A stretch of DNA of 34,500 nt from a virus, in IMG/VR virus record IMGVR_UViG_3300038629_000201, positions 1 through 34,500 of that record. One strand, given 5' to 3'. Position 1 is the first letter of the stretch. Each line of letters opens with the position of its first letter. A model generated the notes under the pieces. It did not search any database. It was not told where the DNA came from and saw only the letters and a list, made by a program, of their open reading frames with translations. This document shows positions 28,841 to 34,500 of the stretch, piece by piece. The translations under genes and the position numbers were made by a program.

Positions 28841-29206
28841 TTAGTTGAAGTCTGTACCCTCCCCACCAAGGTCTACTTCCATGTCATAGCCTCCGGTACT
28901 CCGGAGTATGGCCTCGTCCATGGTGGAGATCTGGATGCACTCACAGATCAGGCTCTCACACGAGCAATCGTCCATGCTCCGTGTCTCCTTCGACTTGCAC
29001 TTGTCGCTGTGGATCGCCTTGATCGCCCAATTCCCACCGTGATCTACGCCGGGCGGGAGATCCTTCCGGACCTCTTCCATAATGTCGATTGCACCCTCAA
29101 TCCCCTCGATGGTGGCCGGGATCTCGAAGACGATCTTCACCCTCGTGTCCTTGCCTATCTGGGCGGTCGCCATGTCCACGACACGCGCTCGGTCGAAGTC
29201 CGCCAT
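28841..29206 (-). CDS. Hypothetical cysteine-rich-centre protein
   Basis: Start at ATG 29206 in a TAATG overlap (121 aa). The N-terminal half is an alpha/beta segment ('GKDTRVKIVFEIPATIEGIEGAIDIMEEVRKDLPPGVDHGG'); the centre has six to seven cysteines in close spacing ('CKSKETRSMDDCSCESLICECI', read with a Lys-rich start), which may bind zinc or a cluster. Residues after ~100 are acidic. No family recognised. It is the last gene before the promoter gap. Confidence 0.55.
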   Translation of the reverse strand: MADFDRARVVDMATAQIGKDTRVKIVFEIPATIEGIEGAIDIMEEVRKDLPPGVDHGGNWAIKAIHSDKCKSKETRSMDDCSCESLICECIQISTMDEAILRSTGGYDMEVDLGGEGTDFN

Positions 29207-29553
29207 TAGCTGCCTCCCCTGCCCTCGTGGGCTAGTTCTGGGAACACGCTGCCCCCGTACTCTTCGATCTTCTCGTCTGTGGTTTCCCACAGCCTGTTGA
29301 TGGTGTCGTCGAAGCTGGCCTCGTGCGCGATCATACGCTTCACGAGGGCCAAGGGAATCCCGTTCTCCCCGCTCTCGTATCTGCGCCACTGTCGCTCGTT
29401 GACACCGTACCATTCTGCAGCCCGTTCCTGACTCCACCCTGCCTTCCGCTGGTTGTTCTTGAAGGCGAAGTCACCGGGCTGCTGACCTCGCCAGCGCACC
29501 AAGTCCTCGGGAGTCATGTCTCTATGCGGTCGCACCCTTGCCTCGTCATTCAT
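29206..29553 (-). CDS. XRE/Cro-CI-type HTH regulator
   Basis: I use ATG 29553 (GGAGG 5 nt upstream; 115 aa), not the ATG at 29577. 'DFAFKNNQRKAGWSQERAAEWYGVNERQWRRYESGENGIPLALVKRM' (~29-77) is the XRE-type HTH ('R...gwSQe.aA...gv....w.ryE.G...iP'). It may act on the nearby promoter at 28790-28818, though no operator was identified. The C-terminal ~40 residues ('DDTINRLWETTDEKIEEYGG') are charged and may be for dimerisation. No CI-type self-cleavage motif. Confidence 0.65.
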   Translation of the reverse strand: MNDEARVRPHRDMTPEDLVRWRGQQPGDFAFKNNQRKAGWSQERAAEWYGVNERQWRRYESGENGIPLALVKRMIAHEASFDDTINRLWETTDEKIEEYGGSVFPELAHEGRGGS

Positions 29554-29746
29554 GTATGCCTCCGTTGCAATGCCCACACGGTCTTAATCGGTCGTGAGTC
29601 TCGTCCAGCCTACGGCTGAACGCTTCCAGATTTTCGAGAGTCTGCTCGCGCACCAACTCTCTCGCCGTGTACTCCCCGGCGATGTTCCGCTCACACGCGG
29701 CCACTATGAGATCCTCTGCCCGCTGCTCGCAGCACGTCGAGAACAC
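29546..29746 (-). CDS. Small hypothetical protein, downstream part of a TGA-split gene
   Basis: GTG at 29746, 6 nt after GGAGG, gives 66 aa: 'FSTCCEQRAEDLIVAACERN', 'AGEYTARELVREQTLENLEAFSRRLDETHD' and a terminal 'CGHCNGG' with a CxxC. The same frame extends upstream through 16 further codons to a TGA (29797-29795) and, beyond it, to an ATG at 29848 in ATGA overlap with the previous gene. The intact gene would be 100 codons long. Either it is a nonsense mutant still translated from an internal start, or it is read through. Confidence 0.5.
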   Translation of the reverse strand: MFSTCCEQRAEDLIVAACERNIAGEYTARELVREQTLENLEAFSRRLDETHDRLRPCGHCNGGIHE

Positions 29747-29848: not shown

Positions 29849-30345
29849 CGCAGCCTCCTAATTCGGTAGCCAAGGTCAACGATCCTGTCGCGAACCCAGA
29901 GAAACGGAGCCAATCTGGCCCAAAGAAGTGCCTTCTTATGGCCTTCTTCTGCCTCTTCCCAAGTGCAGTACCTCCATTGAAACTGATCCAACGGACCTCC
30001 AAAAATCATGGTCTCGAACAGCACGGGCGGACCTTCACCCCAGTTGTGGTCGAGCGCCAGGAATACGGTCGAGATCTGCGCTGGCCATGGGAGCCAGATG
30101 TACGTGTTCCCCACCCGCCTCCGGGGCCTGTTGCCCATGAAAGCGTTCGCCTTCTCCACGTCGCACGGGAAGGGCTTGTTGTCCTCGTCGAGACAGTACC
30201 AGAAGGGGTCTTCGCGCATCCCGCCCATGAACTTGGCCATGATCGAATCGGGATCATCCTCTCCCTTCCATGCCTCCGGATCGGGAGCCCACGGCTCACC
30301 GTCCCAGAACGGATCGGACATATCCCACGGAAAGTCATCCTTCAT
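29845..30345 (-). CDS. Conserved phage protein of unknown function
   Basis: 166 residues; ATG 30345 with GAGG upstream. 'ISTVFLALDHNWGEGPPVLFETMIFGGPLDQFQWRYCTWEEAEEGHKKALLWAR' (~88-142) is a pattern I recall from many phages and prophages ('vSTVFLglDH.fg.GpPlLFETMvFgg...d....RY.TweEA..GH'). No function is known. The N-terminal ~35 residues are Trp/Asp-rich with 'DPEAWKGEDD', and the C-terminus is basic. Overlaps both neighbours. Confidence 0.65.
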   Translation of the reverse strand: MKDDFPWDMSDPFWDGEPWAPDPEAWKGEDDPDSIMAKFMGGMREDPFWYCLDEDNKPFPCDVEKANAFMGNRPRRRVGNTYIWLPWPAQISTVFLALDHNWGEGPPVLFETMIFGGPLDQFQWRYCTWEEAEEGHKKALLWARLAPFLWVRDRIVDLGYRIRRLR

Positions 30346-30841
30346 CTACAGCCTCAAAGGCCAAGGGGAATGTGAGCGCGATACCACCCTCGCCATCCTC
30401 ACCTGTTGCGAAAGGCGCTCGCGTCGATGGGTCCTGCGTTACGCGGGGCATCCACGAGGGTAGCGGGCGCTGTCTCGCCTTGTTGAACACGTACTCGTCG
30501 GGGCTCTCGTCGTCGATGTGGGGCTCTAGGAAGCCCAGGTTGATCCCCGTGCCCTCGGGCATGACGAACAGGTGGTACTGGTTCGACGTGTCCACCACGC
30601 GGAACGTCCCTGGATACAACTCCAACGCCTCACGAAGCGGACCACACAACTCGTTCTTGATCCGAAGGATCTCGCGCCAGTCGTGGATGTGCTCTTTCTT
30701 CACGCGCTTGATCGACAGGTACGTGATCCCGTTGGGAAACTCGTTCACCCTCACTTGGTAGCGGCTGTTGAGCCACACCCTCTCGCCCACTTCGGTGATC
30801 CCGAACAACCGGATCTCTTCGAACTCCGTCCACTCGCTCAT
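30335..30841 (-). CDS. DUF7694-like phage protein
   Basis: 168 residues, ATG in an ATGA overlap. 'VWLNSRYQVRVNEFPNGITYLSIKRVKKEHIHDWREILRIKNELCGPLREALELYPGTFRVVDTSNQYHLFV' fits a recurring phage domain ('...lsi.R.d....hdWRelqrIKNElvGp..EavELyPa.srlvD.aNqyHL.v') that I know as DUF7694; function unknown. The C-terminal ~50 residues are divergent. It belongs to the same tightly overlapped unit as its neighbours, upstream of the regulator genes. Confidence 0.65.
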   Translation of the reverse strand: MSEWTEFEEIRLFGITEVGERVWLNSRYQVRVNEFPNGITYLSIKRVKKEHIHDWREILRIKNELCGPLREALELYPGTFRVVDTSNQYHLFVMPEGTGINLGFLEPHIDDESPDEYVFNKARQRPLPSWMPRVTQDPSTRAPFATGEDGEGGIALTFPLAFEAVDEG

Positions 30842-31341
30842 TGTGCTCCCTCGTCATCGGGGAAGTGCTTGTTGAGGTTCTGCAGCATCATCGCGCCCCC
30901 CTCTGGCCCGTATGAGTGATAGGTCGCTCGTCTGAAAGCCTCGCGGTATTCGACCAGCTTGAAGGACTGCCCAAACTCGTCGCTATTGAACGGCAATTCT
31001 CCGATCTCCACCGTGTCCGCGCACAACTCCACGAGCGTCCACCGCTTCGCGGGGAAGTAGGTCGTTTTCCACTCTCGTTTCTCGTTCTTGTCGTGGAAGC
31101 ATGGCGTCGGGTCGATGATCGTCCCTTCGGGGGTCTCAATCCACCCGTGCATGGATGCGAGAATCCCGCTCCCGTAGCCCTCCACGTAGTATGAGCCTTC
31201 GGGTGCAAACGGGAGCGCGGACCAAGCGTTGTAGAAGCACGCCTTGTCCTGGCCTCGGACCTTCTCGCATAGCTCGCGGGAAAGCTCAAGATCTACAGCC
31301 TCGGGGCCGTATTCTGTGGCCGTCACTAGCCTCTCGCCCAT
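30838..31341 (-). CDS. Papain-like-fold candidate (NlpC/transglutaminase-type)
   Basis: ATG at 31341 in a TAATG overlap with the small TM gene (167 aa); ATG 31353 is an alternative. 'KACFYNAWSALPF' (Cys35), 'YYVEGYGSG', 'MHGWIETPEG' (His65) and 'IIDPTP' (Asp77) have the Cys-x-N ... YVEGY ... HxW ... DPT order of a family of small papain-like proteins in phages and bacteria. A catalytic Cys-His-Asp triad is therefore likely, but the substrate is unknown; it could be a peptidase, amidase or acyltransferase. The remaining C-terminal half has no recognised motif. Confidence 0.55.
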   Translation of the reverse strand: MGERLVTATEYGPEAVDLELSRELCEKVRGQDKACFYNAWSALPFAPEGSYYVEGYGSGILASMHGWIETPEGTIIDPTPCFHDKNEKREWKTTYFPAKRWTLVELCADTVEIGELPFNSDEFGQSFKLVEYREAFRRATYHSYGPEGGAMMLQNLNKHFPDDEGAQ

Positions 31342-31442
31342 TAGGTCAGCCATTCGAAAACCAAAGAGAGCAGCACGAAGATGGTGCCCAGAGTTACTGG
31401 TTCCCAGAACAGCCGCTTCCACGTTAGTGTTTTCTTGTCCAT
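31341..31442 (-). CDS. 33-residue single-TM peptide
   Basis: ATG at 31442 overlaps the previous stop (TAATG) and its TAA at 31343-31341 overlaps the next ATG (TAATG). N-terminal 'MDKKTLTWKRLFWEP' is basic, followed by a TM segment 'VTLGTIFVLLSLVFEWL'. The basic side should stay in the cytoplasm. Function unknown; it follows another membrane protein gene and the AAA+/VWA pair. Confidence 0.55.
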   Translation of the reverse strand: MDKKTLTWKRLFWEPVTLGTIFVLLSLVFEWLT

Positions 31443-31837
31443 TAGTTGAGCCTCGCACGAGCAGCCTTCTCGCTCGGGTGTGAGACCATGCCATCGGTCT
31501 GGTATCCTCGGATGATTAGCTGCTGCTGATCGACCATCGTGCCGTAGCCATTGAGCATTTTCTTGTAGCCATCCTGGCTCCACTCGCGGGTCGTCGCGCC
31601 GATCATGGCGCACACCGCGACCAGCGCCATGAGCCAAAAGCTGCCGAACCAGATCGCCATGCCAATGCACCACCACATATACCAGTCTTTCCTCGCAGCG
31701 CGTAAGAAGCCCCGCGCCCCGTCAAGCTCGCGGGCTCCCTCGCGGACCTTCTTCCACGTTCCTCGCAGCGCATAGAACACGCCTCTCGCTCCCACTAACC
31801 TGTACGTTCTCCACCATCCGAATCTCAGAATTTTCAT
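31442..31837 (-). CDS. Membrane protein downstream of AAA+/VWA pair
   Basis: 131 residues, ATG in ATGA overlap with the VWA-like gene. A basic N-terminal ~50 residues ('GWWRTYRLVGARGVFYALRGTWKKVREGARELD') precedes a Trp-rich hydrophobic stretch ('WYMWWCIGMAIWFGSFWLMALVAVCAMIG', ~52-80), probably one long or two short TM segments. The C-terminal ~50 residues are soluble, with Gln/Gly/Arg. No family recognised. Overlap with the VWA-like gene suggests the products act together. Confidence 0.6.
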   Translation of the reverse strand: MKILRFGWWRTYRLVGARGVFYALRGTWKKVREGARELDGARGFLRAARKDWYMWWCIGMAIWFGSFWLMALVAVCAMIGATTREWSQDGYKKMLNGYGTMVDQQQLIIRGYQTDGMVSHPSEKAARARLN

Positions 31838-32763
31838 CGTCCCAACTCCGGTAGCGCCGCGAGGTTTGCAGCCTGTAATTCTTCAAGCGCATTTTCGATT
31901 GAACGCTTCGCGGCTTGCTCGTCATACGAATCGGGTAGGACTACCTGCGGCACTTCCAAAATCCCCGAAGCGATAGCGGCAGGAATCACCCTGTCCACGC
32001 TGCAGTTATGCCCCAACCCACTCGGCATCGTGAAGGGGCTCGCGCAGTACCCAGCGAACAGGTAGGTCCGGAACGTCGCCCCGTGACAGATGATGCTCGC
32101 CACCGCATCCGATCTCAGGTACTCGCCAGCTTGCTTGATCCTCGCGCAGATCGCGATGTGCTCGTCGTTGCTGTGCATGTCGTTCGCACAGATGGCCGTG
32201 AGGCTCGTCTGATAGCCAGCGTTTTCGAGTATCCGAATCAGCGCCAGCGCCGAAGCACCAGACCAGAAAAGTTGCTCGTGGCTTAGGTCGCAATTTCCAC
32301 CCCAGCCTACGGCTATGTTGATGATCGGTGTGGCCACAGCCAGAGCCCTCGCAGATGTACGCCACGCGGTCTCTAGGTGCCCGTCCAACATGCGCTCCCG
32401 GTCGAACTCGTCACCATCGTCACCCCAGCGTATCCGCCTCCGGATGCCCACGGGCTCGACGACCTTCTCCATCAGCCCGGTGGCTAAAGCCATGGCTCTC
32501 TCGGAGCCTTGAGCCCAGCCCTTGTGGTGCAGCTTTTCGAGCGATTCCAGACTCTTGAGTCTGCCCAGGTAGAATGACTTCTTGATGCTCCCTTCGCCTA
32601 TCCAGCTTTTGTCTAGGTTGGCACGCTTGGCCTTGTTTTTGGCCGGGACCTTTAGGTCCATGAGATCGGGGATCTCGTGAACGTCCATGCCCACGACCCA
32701 CGTTTTTCTCGTTTCCGTGGTGCCGTAGCTTTCGACCTCCTGCTTGTGCGTCACGATATTCAT
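31834..32763 (-). CDS. VWA-like (DUF7192-type, CobT-like) partner of AAA+ ATPase
   Basis: ATG 32763 in ATGA overlap with the ATPase stop (309 aa). Its middle reads 'GIRRRIRWGDDGDEFDRERMLDGHLETAWR' (~107-136), then a Rossmann-like segment 'TPIINIAVGWGGNCDLSHEQLFWSGASALALIRILENAGYQTSLTAI' (~148-194) and a further alpha/beta half. The first part and the 'sGa.alaL...LE.aGY..' segment match the pattern of the phage DUF7192 family, a VWA-related domain. A canonical MIDAS DxSxS is not seen (here GWGGNCD), so metal binding may be lost. VWA proteins partner MoxR/CobS ATPases, as here. Confidence 0.6.
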   Translation of the reverse strand: MNIVTHKQEVESYGTTETRKTWVVGMDVHEIPDLMDLKVPAKNKAKRANLDKSWIGEGSIKKSFYLGRLKSLESLEKLHHKGWAQGSERAMALATGLMEKVVEPVGIRRRIRWGDDGDEFDRERMLDGHLETAWRTSARALAVATPIINIAVGWGGNCDLSHEQLFWSGASALALIRILENAGYQTSLTAICANDMHSNDEHIAICARIKQAGEYLRSDAVASIICHGATFRTYLFAGYCASPFTMPSGLGHNCSVDRVIPAAIASGILEVPQVVLPDSYDEQAAKRSIENALEELQAANLAALPELGR

Positions 32764-34500
32764 GCTGCCACCCCCGCCTTGTTCATCTCGTCCTGCGTCC
32801 AGCCCTTCGTGTGAGCCTTGAGCACCTTCTCGATGCTGTGGCCTCTGGCCAACGCGGTACACATTTTGTCCAGCCCACGAGTGCTCCAAACCCGCTTAAT
32901 GTTCATCTCTTCGAGATTCTTGCGGATGCCCCAGAAACGCTTGAGCACCGGCCCCGCAGCTTCTTTACCCAGCCACGCCTTCGCGATCTCGCCTTCGATC
33001 CTCGCATCGTAGTCAAGCTCAATAGTCGAGCCGACAAAGCGGTTGAGAAAAGCGGCGTCGAGCCTGTTTCTTCCCACGTACTCCATGTTCGGCCCCGTGC
33101 CCCATGTGTTAGCGGCACAAACGAAGTGGAAATCCTCGTGGCGAACGGCATACGGATTATCCACGCGGTTCGGGATGCTCAAGTGCGGGCTGCTCAGGCA
33201 CTCATTGATTATGAGAAGCACGTTCGGATTTGCAGCGTCAACTTCGTCGAGCAAGAAGAGGCCACCGTTTTCGTAGCAATCCACGAAGCTGCTTTGCAGG
33301 TAGAGGAACCGATCAGCCAGCGGAACGCCTCTCCCAAGCACCATGCCCTCGCTCATGCCCTCGGAGCACGACTGGAACCCGAAGCGTAGCTTGTAGGAAT
33401 CGGCCAAGTGCTGTGCCAAAATTCCCTTTCCGCTACCAGCGGGACCCACGAGGAACAACGGCATCTGCATGTCCAAGCACTCGCGAGCTTCGTCGAAAGC
33501 CTTGTGGGGGCACCCTTCGATCTTGTGTACTTCTCCATTCATGGAGACTTCGATCCGGCGAGGGGCGTTCAGCTTGTCGGCCACCAGATCAGCGATCTCG
33601 TTCACGTTGATCTCTGCGGGCTTCTGCTCACCCATGCCCTTCACGAGCGCCTTGACTTCCTTGCGAACCTTGGCGATCTCAGCTTTGCTGGGAGCACCCT
33701 TGCCGTTTCCGCCACCCTTGCCGATCCGGCCCTTTAGGGCCACATGGCTCTTCGTCAGAGCTTCATAAAGCTCGGTACGGATCTCCTGGCTCTCTTGGGC
33801 CACGACCTTGCGGGTCCAATCGTCCACGTCCGCCAGAGACTTCGAAAGCACCGTCACAACTTCGTTGTGGGAGGCGCTTCTGATCGCTTCGTCCGCATCC
33901 TCTCCGGTGTACGGGGCTTCGCCATCTGTCCGAAGTAGCTGCAAATTCGGGTCCCGCATGTTCTCTCGCGGTTTCGGCAGATCCTTCGGCGGATCTTGCT
34001 TGCAGCAACCTTCGGTTGAACCCTTGGGCTCACCGCACTCGGGGCACGTCGGCATCTTTGGCGTGTCGTCATCCCCGCCCTTGCCGTCGCTCTCCCCGTC
34101 ACCCTCGCCACCCCCGCTCTCGCCCTCGTCGCCGCCGTCGTCGTCACCCTCACCTTCACCTTCGGTGCCGTCGTCGCCGCCAGAGGGTCCACCGTGGCCG
34201 TTGTTGCCCTCTTCGTTCCTGCGGTCGTCCTCGCCCTCTTCGAACGCCTTCCCACGGGGCTTGGCGACCTTCTCGGTGCTGGCATCGGCACGGTAGCGTG
34301 AACCGCTATCGTCAAACCGTGGCCCAAGCTCTGCTTGCATCGCGTCACGGCCCTGCTTCATCGCATCTTCCGGCGAAGCCGCCCTGATATTCTGCTCCCG
34401 AAAGATCCGCTTTCGAGACTGTCCTTCGAGCACGTATTTTTGGGTATACGTGTACCTGTCGAGGTTTTCAGCTTCACCCTCGTATTTCTCTTCCTCGCCC
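32760..34500 (-). CDS. CobS/MoxR-type AAA+ ATPase (5' end off window)
   Basis: The frame runs through the GTG at 34433 to the right edge without a stop and has the amino-acid mix of coding sequence there ('NLDRYTYTQKYVLEGQ'), so the start is off-window. Counting from 34433: an acidic Gly/Asp/Glu-rich linker (~65-125), a CPECGEPKGSTEGCC zinc site (~130-144), a helical linker, then AAA+ with Walker A 'GPAGSGKG' (330-337), Walker B 'LFLLDEVDA' (392-400), sensor 1 'CAANTWG' (Asn442), and 'RLDAAFLNRF' (Arg465, finger). These are CobS/MoxR signatures. Such ATPases remodel proteins with a VWA partner, encoded next. Confidence 0.8.
   Translation of the reverse strand, partial: GEEEKYEGEAENLDRYTYTQKYVLEGQSRKRIFREQNIRAASPEDAMKQGRDAMQAELGPRFDDSGSRYRADASTEKVAKPRGKAFEEGEDDRRNEEGNNGHGGPSGGDDGTEGEGEGDDDGGDEGESGGGEGDGESDGKGGDDDTPKMPTCPECGEPKGSTEGCCKQDPPKDLPKPRENMRDPNLQLLRTDGEAPYTGEDADEAIRSASHNEVVTVLSKSLADVDDWTRKVVAQESQEIRTELYEALTKSHVALKGRIGKGGGNGKGAPSKAEIAKVRKEVKALVKGMGEQKPAEINVNEIADLVADKLNAPRRIEVSMNGEVHKIEGCPHKAFDEARECLDMQMPLFLVGPAGSGKGILAQHLADSYKLRFGFQSCSEGMSEGMVLGRGVPLADRFLYLQSSFVDCYENGGLFLLDEVDAANPNVLLIINECLSSPHLSIPNRVDNPYAVRHEDFHFVCAANTWGTGPNMEYVGRNRLDAAFLNRFVGSTIELDYDARIEGEIAKAWLGKEAAGPVLKRFWGIRKNLEEMNIKRVWSTRGLDKMCTALARGHSIEKVLKAHTKGWTQDEMNKAGVAA

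What the first reader, a model, noticed from the sequence alone, without database searches (positions are those of the whole stretch)
30838..34500. AAA+/VWA pair coupled to two membrane proteins and a papain-like protein
A CobS/MoxR-type ATPase with a zinc site and acidic linker, a VWA-like partner lacking an evident MIDAS, a Trp-rich membrane protein, a 33-residue TM peptide and a probable Cys-His-Asp protein are joined by 1-4 nt overlaps. MoxR-VWA pairs are known to remodel protein complexes; phage copies have no established role. The membrane proteins and hydrolase candidate suggest a membrane-directed machine, e.g. for host takeover or defence inhibition. It is the best candidate here for an undescribed system.
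Basis: partly seen in the sequence, partly recalled or inferred. Interest (0 to 1): 0.6.

Follow-up and report, generated by a model that had tools for sequence, protein, structure and literature searches.

The report
Phage protein-remodelling ATPase with adaptor partner
The first two genes encode a ring-forming ATPase and its adaptor, a pair shared by very many phages and some bacterial chromosomes and built like known protein-remodelling machines; the membrane and cysteine-histidine genes beside them are variable neighbours of this one phage group, not parts of a conserved five-gene machine.

Summary
In detail: five overlapping genes on the minus strand encode an AAA+ ATPase, a VWA-fold protein, two small membrane proteins and a Cys-His protein. 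The five-gene interpretation is not. In 75 of 75 IMG/VR loci with room to tell, the ATPase is next to a DUF7192 protein, and the pair also lies in 53 of 66 bacterial contigs. A confident AlphaFold model of the window's DUF7192 protein (pLDDT 90.5) has only four significant PDB matches, all NorD VWA domains in NorQD complexes. It lacks the MIDAS metal motif, as does nearly the whole family. The membrane protein occurs in one other locus. The TM peptide and this form of the Cys-His gene occur only here, and the closest relative has a different gene in the slot. Best explanation: a NorQ/NorD-like motor and adaptor that remodels an unknown target, followed by an accessory-gene slot. Phage MoxR/CobS-VWA pairs are published; what is added is the VWA assignment of DUF7192, its near-loss of MIDAS, and its spread in phages and cells.

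The parts
32760..34499 (-). CobS/MoxR/NorQ-like AAA+ ATPase, N-terminus cut by the window end; acidic low-complexity linker; CxxC...CC motif; AAA+ module at residues ~330-565
   Evidence: AAA_5 E=1.8e-12; PHROG 249 E=4.2e-45; PDB profile matches midasin, CobS, CbbQ/NorQ; Walker B, sensor 1, Arg finger and sensor 2 intact, Walker A is GPAGSGKG
31834..32763 (-). DUF7192 protein: VWA fold with degenerate MIDAS, preceded by a conserved GDE[LV]D...G..E.AW strand-helix-strand element that may be the pore finger; adaptor of the ATPase
   Evidence: Pfam DUF7192 E=3e-20; AlphaFold pLDDT 90.5, pTM 0.85; the only PDB fold matches with E<=1e-3 are NorD VWA in NorQD complexes; motif statistics
31442..31837 (-). 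131-aa Trp-rich protein with one hydrophobic stretch; accessory gene, shared only with L012
   Evidence: L012:3969-4322 E=2.6e-43; no other homologue in the fetched loci or in phage records
31341..31442 (-). 33-aa single-TM peptide (MDKKTLTWKRLFWEPVTLGTIFVLLSLVFEWLT)
   Evidence: TAATG overlaps on both sides; no homologue in the fetched loci
30838..31341 (-). 167-aa protein with a C-[FY]-x-N ... Y-x-E-G-Y ... H-x-W ... D-P-T motif (transglutaminase/papain-like order of Cys, His, Asp); accessory gene
   Evidence: Eight distant phage relatives L097-L104; invariant C35, N38, E54, G55, H65, W67, D77; fold not modelled
30335..30841 (-). DUF7694 protein, next gene of the same string; conserved in L002, where it follows a different slot gene
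   Evidence: DUF7694 E=3.1e-12; homologue in L002 at E=5e-98

Best explanation
The ATPase and the DUF7192 protein form one machine of the MoxR-like AAA+/VWA kind. The ATPase makes a hexameric ring; the VWA protein docks on it, with a strand-helix-strand finger in the pore; ATP hydrolysis turns or pulls the VWA protein and so remodels a target protein that it holds. Because the MIDAS is degenerate, the target must be held by another surface of the VWA protein or its N-terminal part, or by the ATPase's N-terminal extension. The Trp-rich membrane protein, the TM peptide and the Cys-His protein are accessory genes in a variable slot downstream of the pair, co-transcribed with it but not parts of it. 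Shown by computation: family, fold, conserved pairing, degenerate MIDAS, variable slot. Inferred: ring, docking, finger, force on a target, identity of the target (unknown).
For: Pairing in 75/75 IMG/VR loci with room, in isolates of Staphylococcus, Rhizobium, Listeria and Acinetobacter phages, mycobacteriophages and a crAss-like phage, and in 53/66 bacterial contigs. VWA fold: pLDDT 90.5, and the only significant PDB matches are NorD VWA domains bound to NorQ; in BFVD the next matches after DUF7192 proteins are phage CobT/VWFA proteins. ATPase profile matches midasin, CobS and CbbQ/NorQ, all AAA+ proteins that work with VWA domains. Catalytic residues conserved. A conserved G-D-E-[LV]-D ... 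G element directly before the VWA core is predicted as strand-helix-strand; in NorQD a finger with a helical tip enters the ring pore (PMC13036017). Slot variability.
Against: No complex was modelled, so docking and finger rest on analogy. Foldseek TM-scores to NorD are low (0.24-0.35) although probability is 1.00. MIDAS, needed in NorD for action on its target but not for binding NorQ (PMC9976466), is missing. The Walker A Thr/Ser is Gly in this clade, so full ATPase activity is not certain. No target is known.
Confidence: 0.7

Rival explanations
1. Cobalt chelatase: the pair is CobS-CobT and raises cobalamin synthesis with host CobN, as proposed for tailed-virus cobST clusters.
For: PHROG 249 is named 'porphyrin biosynthesis'; CobS is among the PDB profile matches; CobT is the best, though weak, PDB sequence match of the VWA profile (E=0.24). 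Proposed in PMC8651126.
Against: No CobS equivalog match in NCBIfam and no CobT model in Pfam. MIDAS not conserved. The PDB profile match to CobS is shared with other VWA-partnered AAA+ proteins. No other cobalamin gene was recognised among the window proteins scanned.
Confidence: 0.06
2. Virion assembly chaperone: the pair remodels or assembles tail or head proteins, as proposed for ATV p618/p892 and for MoxR-vWA pairs of jumbo phages.
For: ATV p618/p892 (PMC4124505); proposal for jumbo phages (PMC7824862); terminase large subunit is the commonest named neighbour family in the flank census.
Against: In the window the pair lies on the strand of the RecE, RecT and DnaB-like genes, opposite the virion genes. 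In a crAss-like phage it sits between a Sak4-like gene and a primase. Neighbours across loci are mixed. The pair also occurs in bacterial contigs, some with no obvious phage genes.
Confidence: 0.2
3. Five-gene membrane-directed machine: the ATPase-VWA pair acts on or through the membrane proteins and the Cys-His hydrolase.
For: Overlapping genes in this phage; the Trp-rich membrane protein follows the pair in L012 too; a Staphylococcus phage has an unrelated small membrane gene right after the pair.
Against: Slot content differs between close relatives; third genes with TM are not enriched, 4/75 against a background of 10.6%; the Cys-His relatives lie in loci without the pair.
Confidence: 0.06

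Closest known systems
NorQ/NorD (nitric oxide reductase maturation, MoxR AAA+/VWA)
   Same: AAA+ ATPase paired with a VWA protein; NorD VWA domains are the only significant PDB fold matches of the window's VWA; a conserved element before the VWA core could be the finger
   Different: NorD is about 70 kDa with an N-terminal domain and linker and a MIDAS needed for its target; DUF7192 is about 300 aa with a degenerate MIDAS; target unknown
CobS/CobT and the cobST clusters of tailed viruses (PMC8651126)
   Same: Two-gene ATPase-VWA cluster in tailed viruses; CobT aligns with its DNSGSM over the family's N-x-x-x-S
   Different: No CobS or CobT family match; in a cyanophage the CobS neighbour is a large protein with a canonical DWSGSM and no DUF7192 match
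ATV p618/p892 and the jumbo-phage MoxR-vWA pair (PMC4124505, PMC7824862)
   Same: Virus-encoded MoxR-type ATPase with a VWA partner
   Different: Sequence relation not tested; jumbo-phage vWA is fused to a metallopeptidase; a virion role is not indicated here
Pfam DUF7192 / PHROG 1909
   Same: The VWA-like protein is a member
   Different: Annotated as of unknown function; here assigned a VWA fold and an ATPase partner

Membership tests
MoxR-like AAA+ (CobS/NorQ/CbbQ group) | AAA+ module with Walker A, Walker B, sensor 1, Arg finger, sensor 2 | tested here: met
   Walker A is GK-G instead of GK-[TS] in the window, L002 and L012 only; AAA_5 match
MoxR-like AAA+ (CobS/NorQ/CbbQ group) | Neighbouring VWA-fold partner | tested here: met
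   75 of 75 IMG/VR loci with room; VWA fold
MoxR-like AAA+ (CobS/NorQ/CbbQ group) | Hexamer with helix-2 insert in the pore | not testable with these tools
   No complex prediction on hand
Pfam DUF7192 | Match above the curated cut-off | tested here: met
   73.1 bits against 27
VWA fold | Structure matches VWA domains | tested here: met
MIDAS-bearing VWA (NorD, CobT) | DxSxS metal motif | tested here: not met
   GWGGN in the window; D, S/T, S/T at all three positions in 3 of 86 viral and 0 of 51 bacterial-contig members
Cobaltochelatase CobS/CobT | Match to CobS (NCBIfam) or CobT (Pfam) models | tested here: not met
Cobaltochelatase CobS/CobT | Works with CobN on a corrin ring | not testable with these tools
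   Needs an assay; host unknown and genome incomplete
NorD-type adaptor | Finger that enters the ATPase pore | tested here: inconclusive
   Conserved strand-helix-strand element before the VWA core; no complex model
Transglutaminase/papain-like fold (30838-31341) | Cys, His, Asp in order with H-x-W and D-P-T | tested here: met
   Invariant in seven aligned proteins; the Cys element was not part of the search pattern
Transglutaminase/papain-like fold (30838-31341) | The fold itself | tested here: inconclusive
   AlphaFold pLDDT 35; no PDB or Pfam match
Known anti-phage defence systems (PADLOC) | Match to a PADLOC model | tested here: not met
   Only E=0.058 for the ATPase

The most novel reading that the evidence does not exclude
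The ATPase-DUF7192 pair is a general, MIDAS-independent AAA+/VWA remodeller of cells and phages, and in this phage group it handles (folds, activates or delivers) interchangeable effector enzymes encoded in the slot beside it: a transglutaminase-like protein with membrane helpers here, an ADP-ribosyltransferase-like protein in L002.
Probability: 0.08. Interest if true: 0.75.

Novelty: new variant of a known kind. Interest (0 to 1): 0.42.

Why it matters
Phage 'cobS' genes are widely listed as vitamin B12 genes, while PMC11288001 notes that their function in phages is uncertain. The results give most of the relatives examined a VWA-fold partner that current libraries call 'unknown function', show that it has nearly lost the MIDAS thought to hold the target, and show the same pair in bacterial contigs. 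For this branch that favours a protein-remodelling role over cobalamin synthesis and makes the question testable with two purified proteins. It also corrects the idea of a five-gene membrane machine.

Tried and rejected
Five-gene system: rejected, slot genes vary. Membrane gene enrichment after the pair: none. Close relatives of the Cys-His protein in IMG/VR, phage records, plasmids and GTDB contigs: none with BLAST-type searches; a motif pattern found eight distant ones. Its structure from a single sequence: useless; PDB profile: chance-level matches only. Defence system: no PADLOC match. Neighbourhood as a guide to function: mixed, so not used as proof of a replication or a virion role. Trp-rich membrane protein in phage records: no match. 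DUF7192 in papers: none held. Literature on phage CobS/MoxR together with host takeover: no hits.
Full report
What is there. The window is an IMG/VR virus record of 34,500 bases, with portal-like, internal-virion-like and endolysin genes on the plus strand and DnaB-like, RecT and RecE genes on the minus strand. The finding lies at the upstream end of the minus-strand genes. Searches confirm the five genes and their overlaps (ATGA, ATGA, TAATG, TAATG); a further ATGA joins them to a DUF7694 gene. The ATPase is cut by the window end.

The ATPase. It matches AAA_5 and PHROG 249, 'porphyrin biosynthesis'. A four-sequence profile matches midasin best in the PDB, then CobS, and further down CbbQ/NorQ. 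In 85 aligned relatives the Walker A Lys, the Walker B Asp-Glu, the sensor 1 Asn and the Arg of the finger motif are invariant and the sensor 2 Arg is 96%. Only the window, L002 and L012 have GK-G in Walker A. The zinc-type motif (CxxC...CC) of this form is confined to the same three.

The partner. The second protein belongs to DUF7192, a family with no known function. With 57 relatives AlphaFold gives pLDDT 90.5 and pTM 0.85. Of all PDB chains only four match at E <= 1e-3, and all are NorD VWA domains in NorQ-NorD complexes; VWF A1 domains come next among the better-supported matches. TM-scores to NorD are low, so this is a fold assignment, not close kinship. In BFVD the first hits are DUF7192 proteins, followed by phage CobT and VWFA proteins. 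The VWA profile's best PDB sequence match, though weak (E 0.24), is CobT, whose DNSGSM falls on the family's N-x-x-x-S. All three MIDAS positions are canonical in 3 of 86 viral members and in 0 of 51 from bacterial contigs; the window has GWGGN. Directly before the VWA core lies a conserved element (G117 99%, D121 80%, G128 87%), predicted as strand, short helix, strand. In NorQD a finger with a helical tip enters the ring pore (PMC13036017), so this element is my candidate for the finger; that is inference.

Pairing. A scan of IMG/VR with the ATPase alignment gave 80 loci. Five end too soon. In all 75 others a DUF7192-like gene is next to or near the ATPase, downstream on the same strand in 73 and divergent in two near-identical loci. 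Isolates of Staphylococcus, Rhizobium, Listeria, Acinetobacter and Mycobacterium phages and a crAss-like phage have it too. A cyanophage with a CobS-like ATPase has a different neighbour, with a canonical DWSGSM and no DUF7192 match. In bacterial contigs 53 of 66 loci have the pair. The Planctomycetota ones share neighbours with viral loci and look like proviruses; several Bacteroidota and Saccharibacteria ones lie among apparently ordinary chromosomal genes (neighbours there judged by eye from sequence, not by a family search). In an ATPase tree viral and bacterial copies change places 13 times, against about 46 when labels are shuffled: partly separate, with repeated exchange.

The other genes. 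The Trp-rich membrane protein is in L012 (E 2.6e-43) and nowhere else in the fetched loci; the TM peptide and the Cys-His protein are in none. L002, the closest relative, has between the VWA and DUF7694 genes a 230-aa protein with YRG ... SWT ... EQE motifs, like ADP-ribosyltransferases (sequence impression; no Pfam match), also found in mycobacteriophages. L012 has yet another gene after its membrane gene. In 75 loci with a called third gene, four of these have a predicted TM segment, against 10.6% of all genes. So the pair is the unit and the rest is a slot. A pattern of the Cys-His protein's EGY, H[AG]W and DPT elements found eight distant phage proteins; all have C-[FY]-x-N upstream, which the pattern did not ask for. 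Two are large multidomain proteins, one with an ADP-ribosyltransferase domain, one with a MuF-like start (by eye). None of those loci holds the pair. The order Cys, H-x-W, D-P-T recalls transglutaminase-like enzymes (established knowledge); the fold is untested because the single-sequence model failed.

How it works. By analogy with NorQD, the ATPase ring is expected to grip the VWA protein in its pore and turn or pull it, so that a bound target is remodelled. In NorD the MIDAS is needed for action on the target but not for binding NorQ (PMC9976466); its loss here means that another surface must hold the target, or that no stable target contact of that kind is used. The target is unknown. The position with replication and recombination genes in the window and in a crAss-like phage argues weakly for an early role, but the census of neighbours is mixed.

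What is known. Phage ATPase-VWA pairs are published: cobST clusters with a cobalamin hypothesis (PMC8651126), a MoxR-vWA pair in jumbo phages with a virion-assembly hypothesis (PMC7824862), and ATV p618/p892 (PMC4124505). PMC11288001 calls the function of phage cobS uncertain. The chelatase reading is not supported for this branch: no CobS or CobT family match and no MIDAS. I found no paper that names DUF7192, but the library holds only open papers, so novelty of the VWA assignment is not proven.

Verdict. Observation confirmed; interpretation partly supported. New variant of a known kind, moderate interest.

Noticed in passing
window 33433-33410 region (ATPase Walker A): Walker A reads GPAGSGKG: the usual Thr/Ser after Lys is Gly, only in the window, L002 and L012.
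   Followed up: partly
L002:7047-7739: ADP-ribosyltransferase-like protein in the slot that holds the membrane and Cys-His genes in the window; related genes in mycobacteriophages L008, L009, L011.
   Followed up: partly
L004:7030-7881, L007-L011, L090, L085: Second (or third) DUF7192 copy in the same locus: about 3-4 kb downstream of the first in mycobacteriophages, in tandem in L090 and L085.
   Followed up: no
L134, L139-L141, L149, L158, L164: Bacteroidota loci: the pair is followed by a conserved 46-aa peptide (MSKKISNQQNQANQSNSNKGTKGTNKQ...), and in some preceded by a response-regulator-like gene.
   Followed up: no
L128: Saprospiraceae contig in which the pair lies between genes that look like dnaN and recA (by eye).
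   Followed up: no
L097:57-1964 and L104: Large multidomain phage proteins that carry the Cys-His domain, L097 together with an ADP-ribosyltransferase domain (PF03496), L104 with a MuF-like start (by eye).
   Followed up: partly
L096:1308-3413: Cyanophage gene annotated 'peptidase' near CobS has a canonical MIDAS-like DWSGSM, in line with the remark in PMC8651126 that cobT is misannotated as peptidase.
   Followed up: partly
window 29206-29577: HTH-type protein downstream in the same strand, also present in L002 and L012.
   Followed up: no
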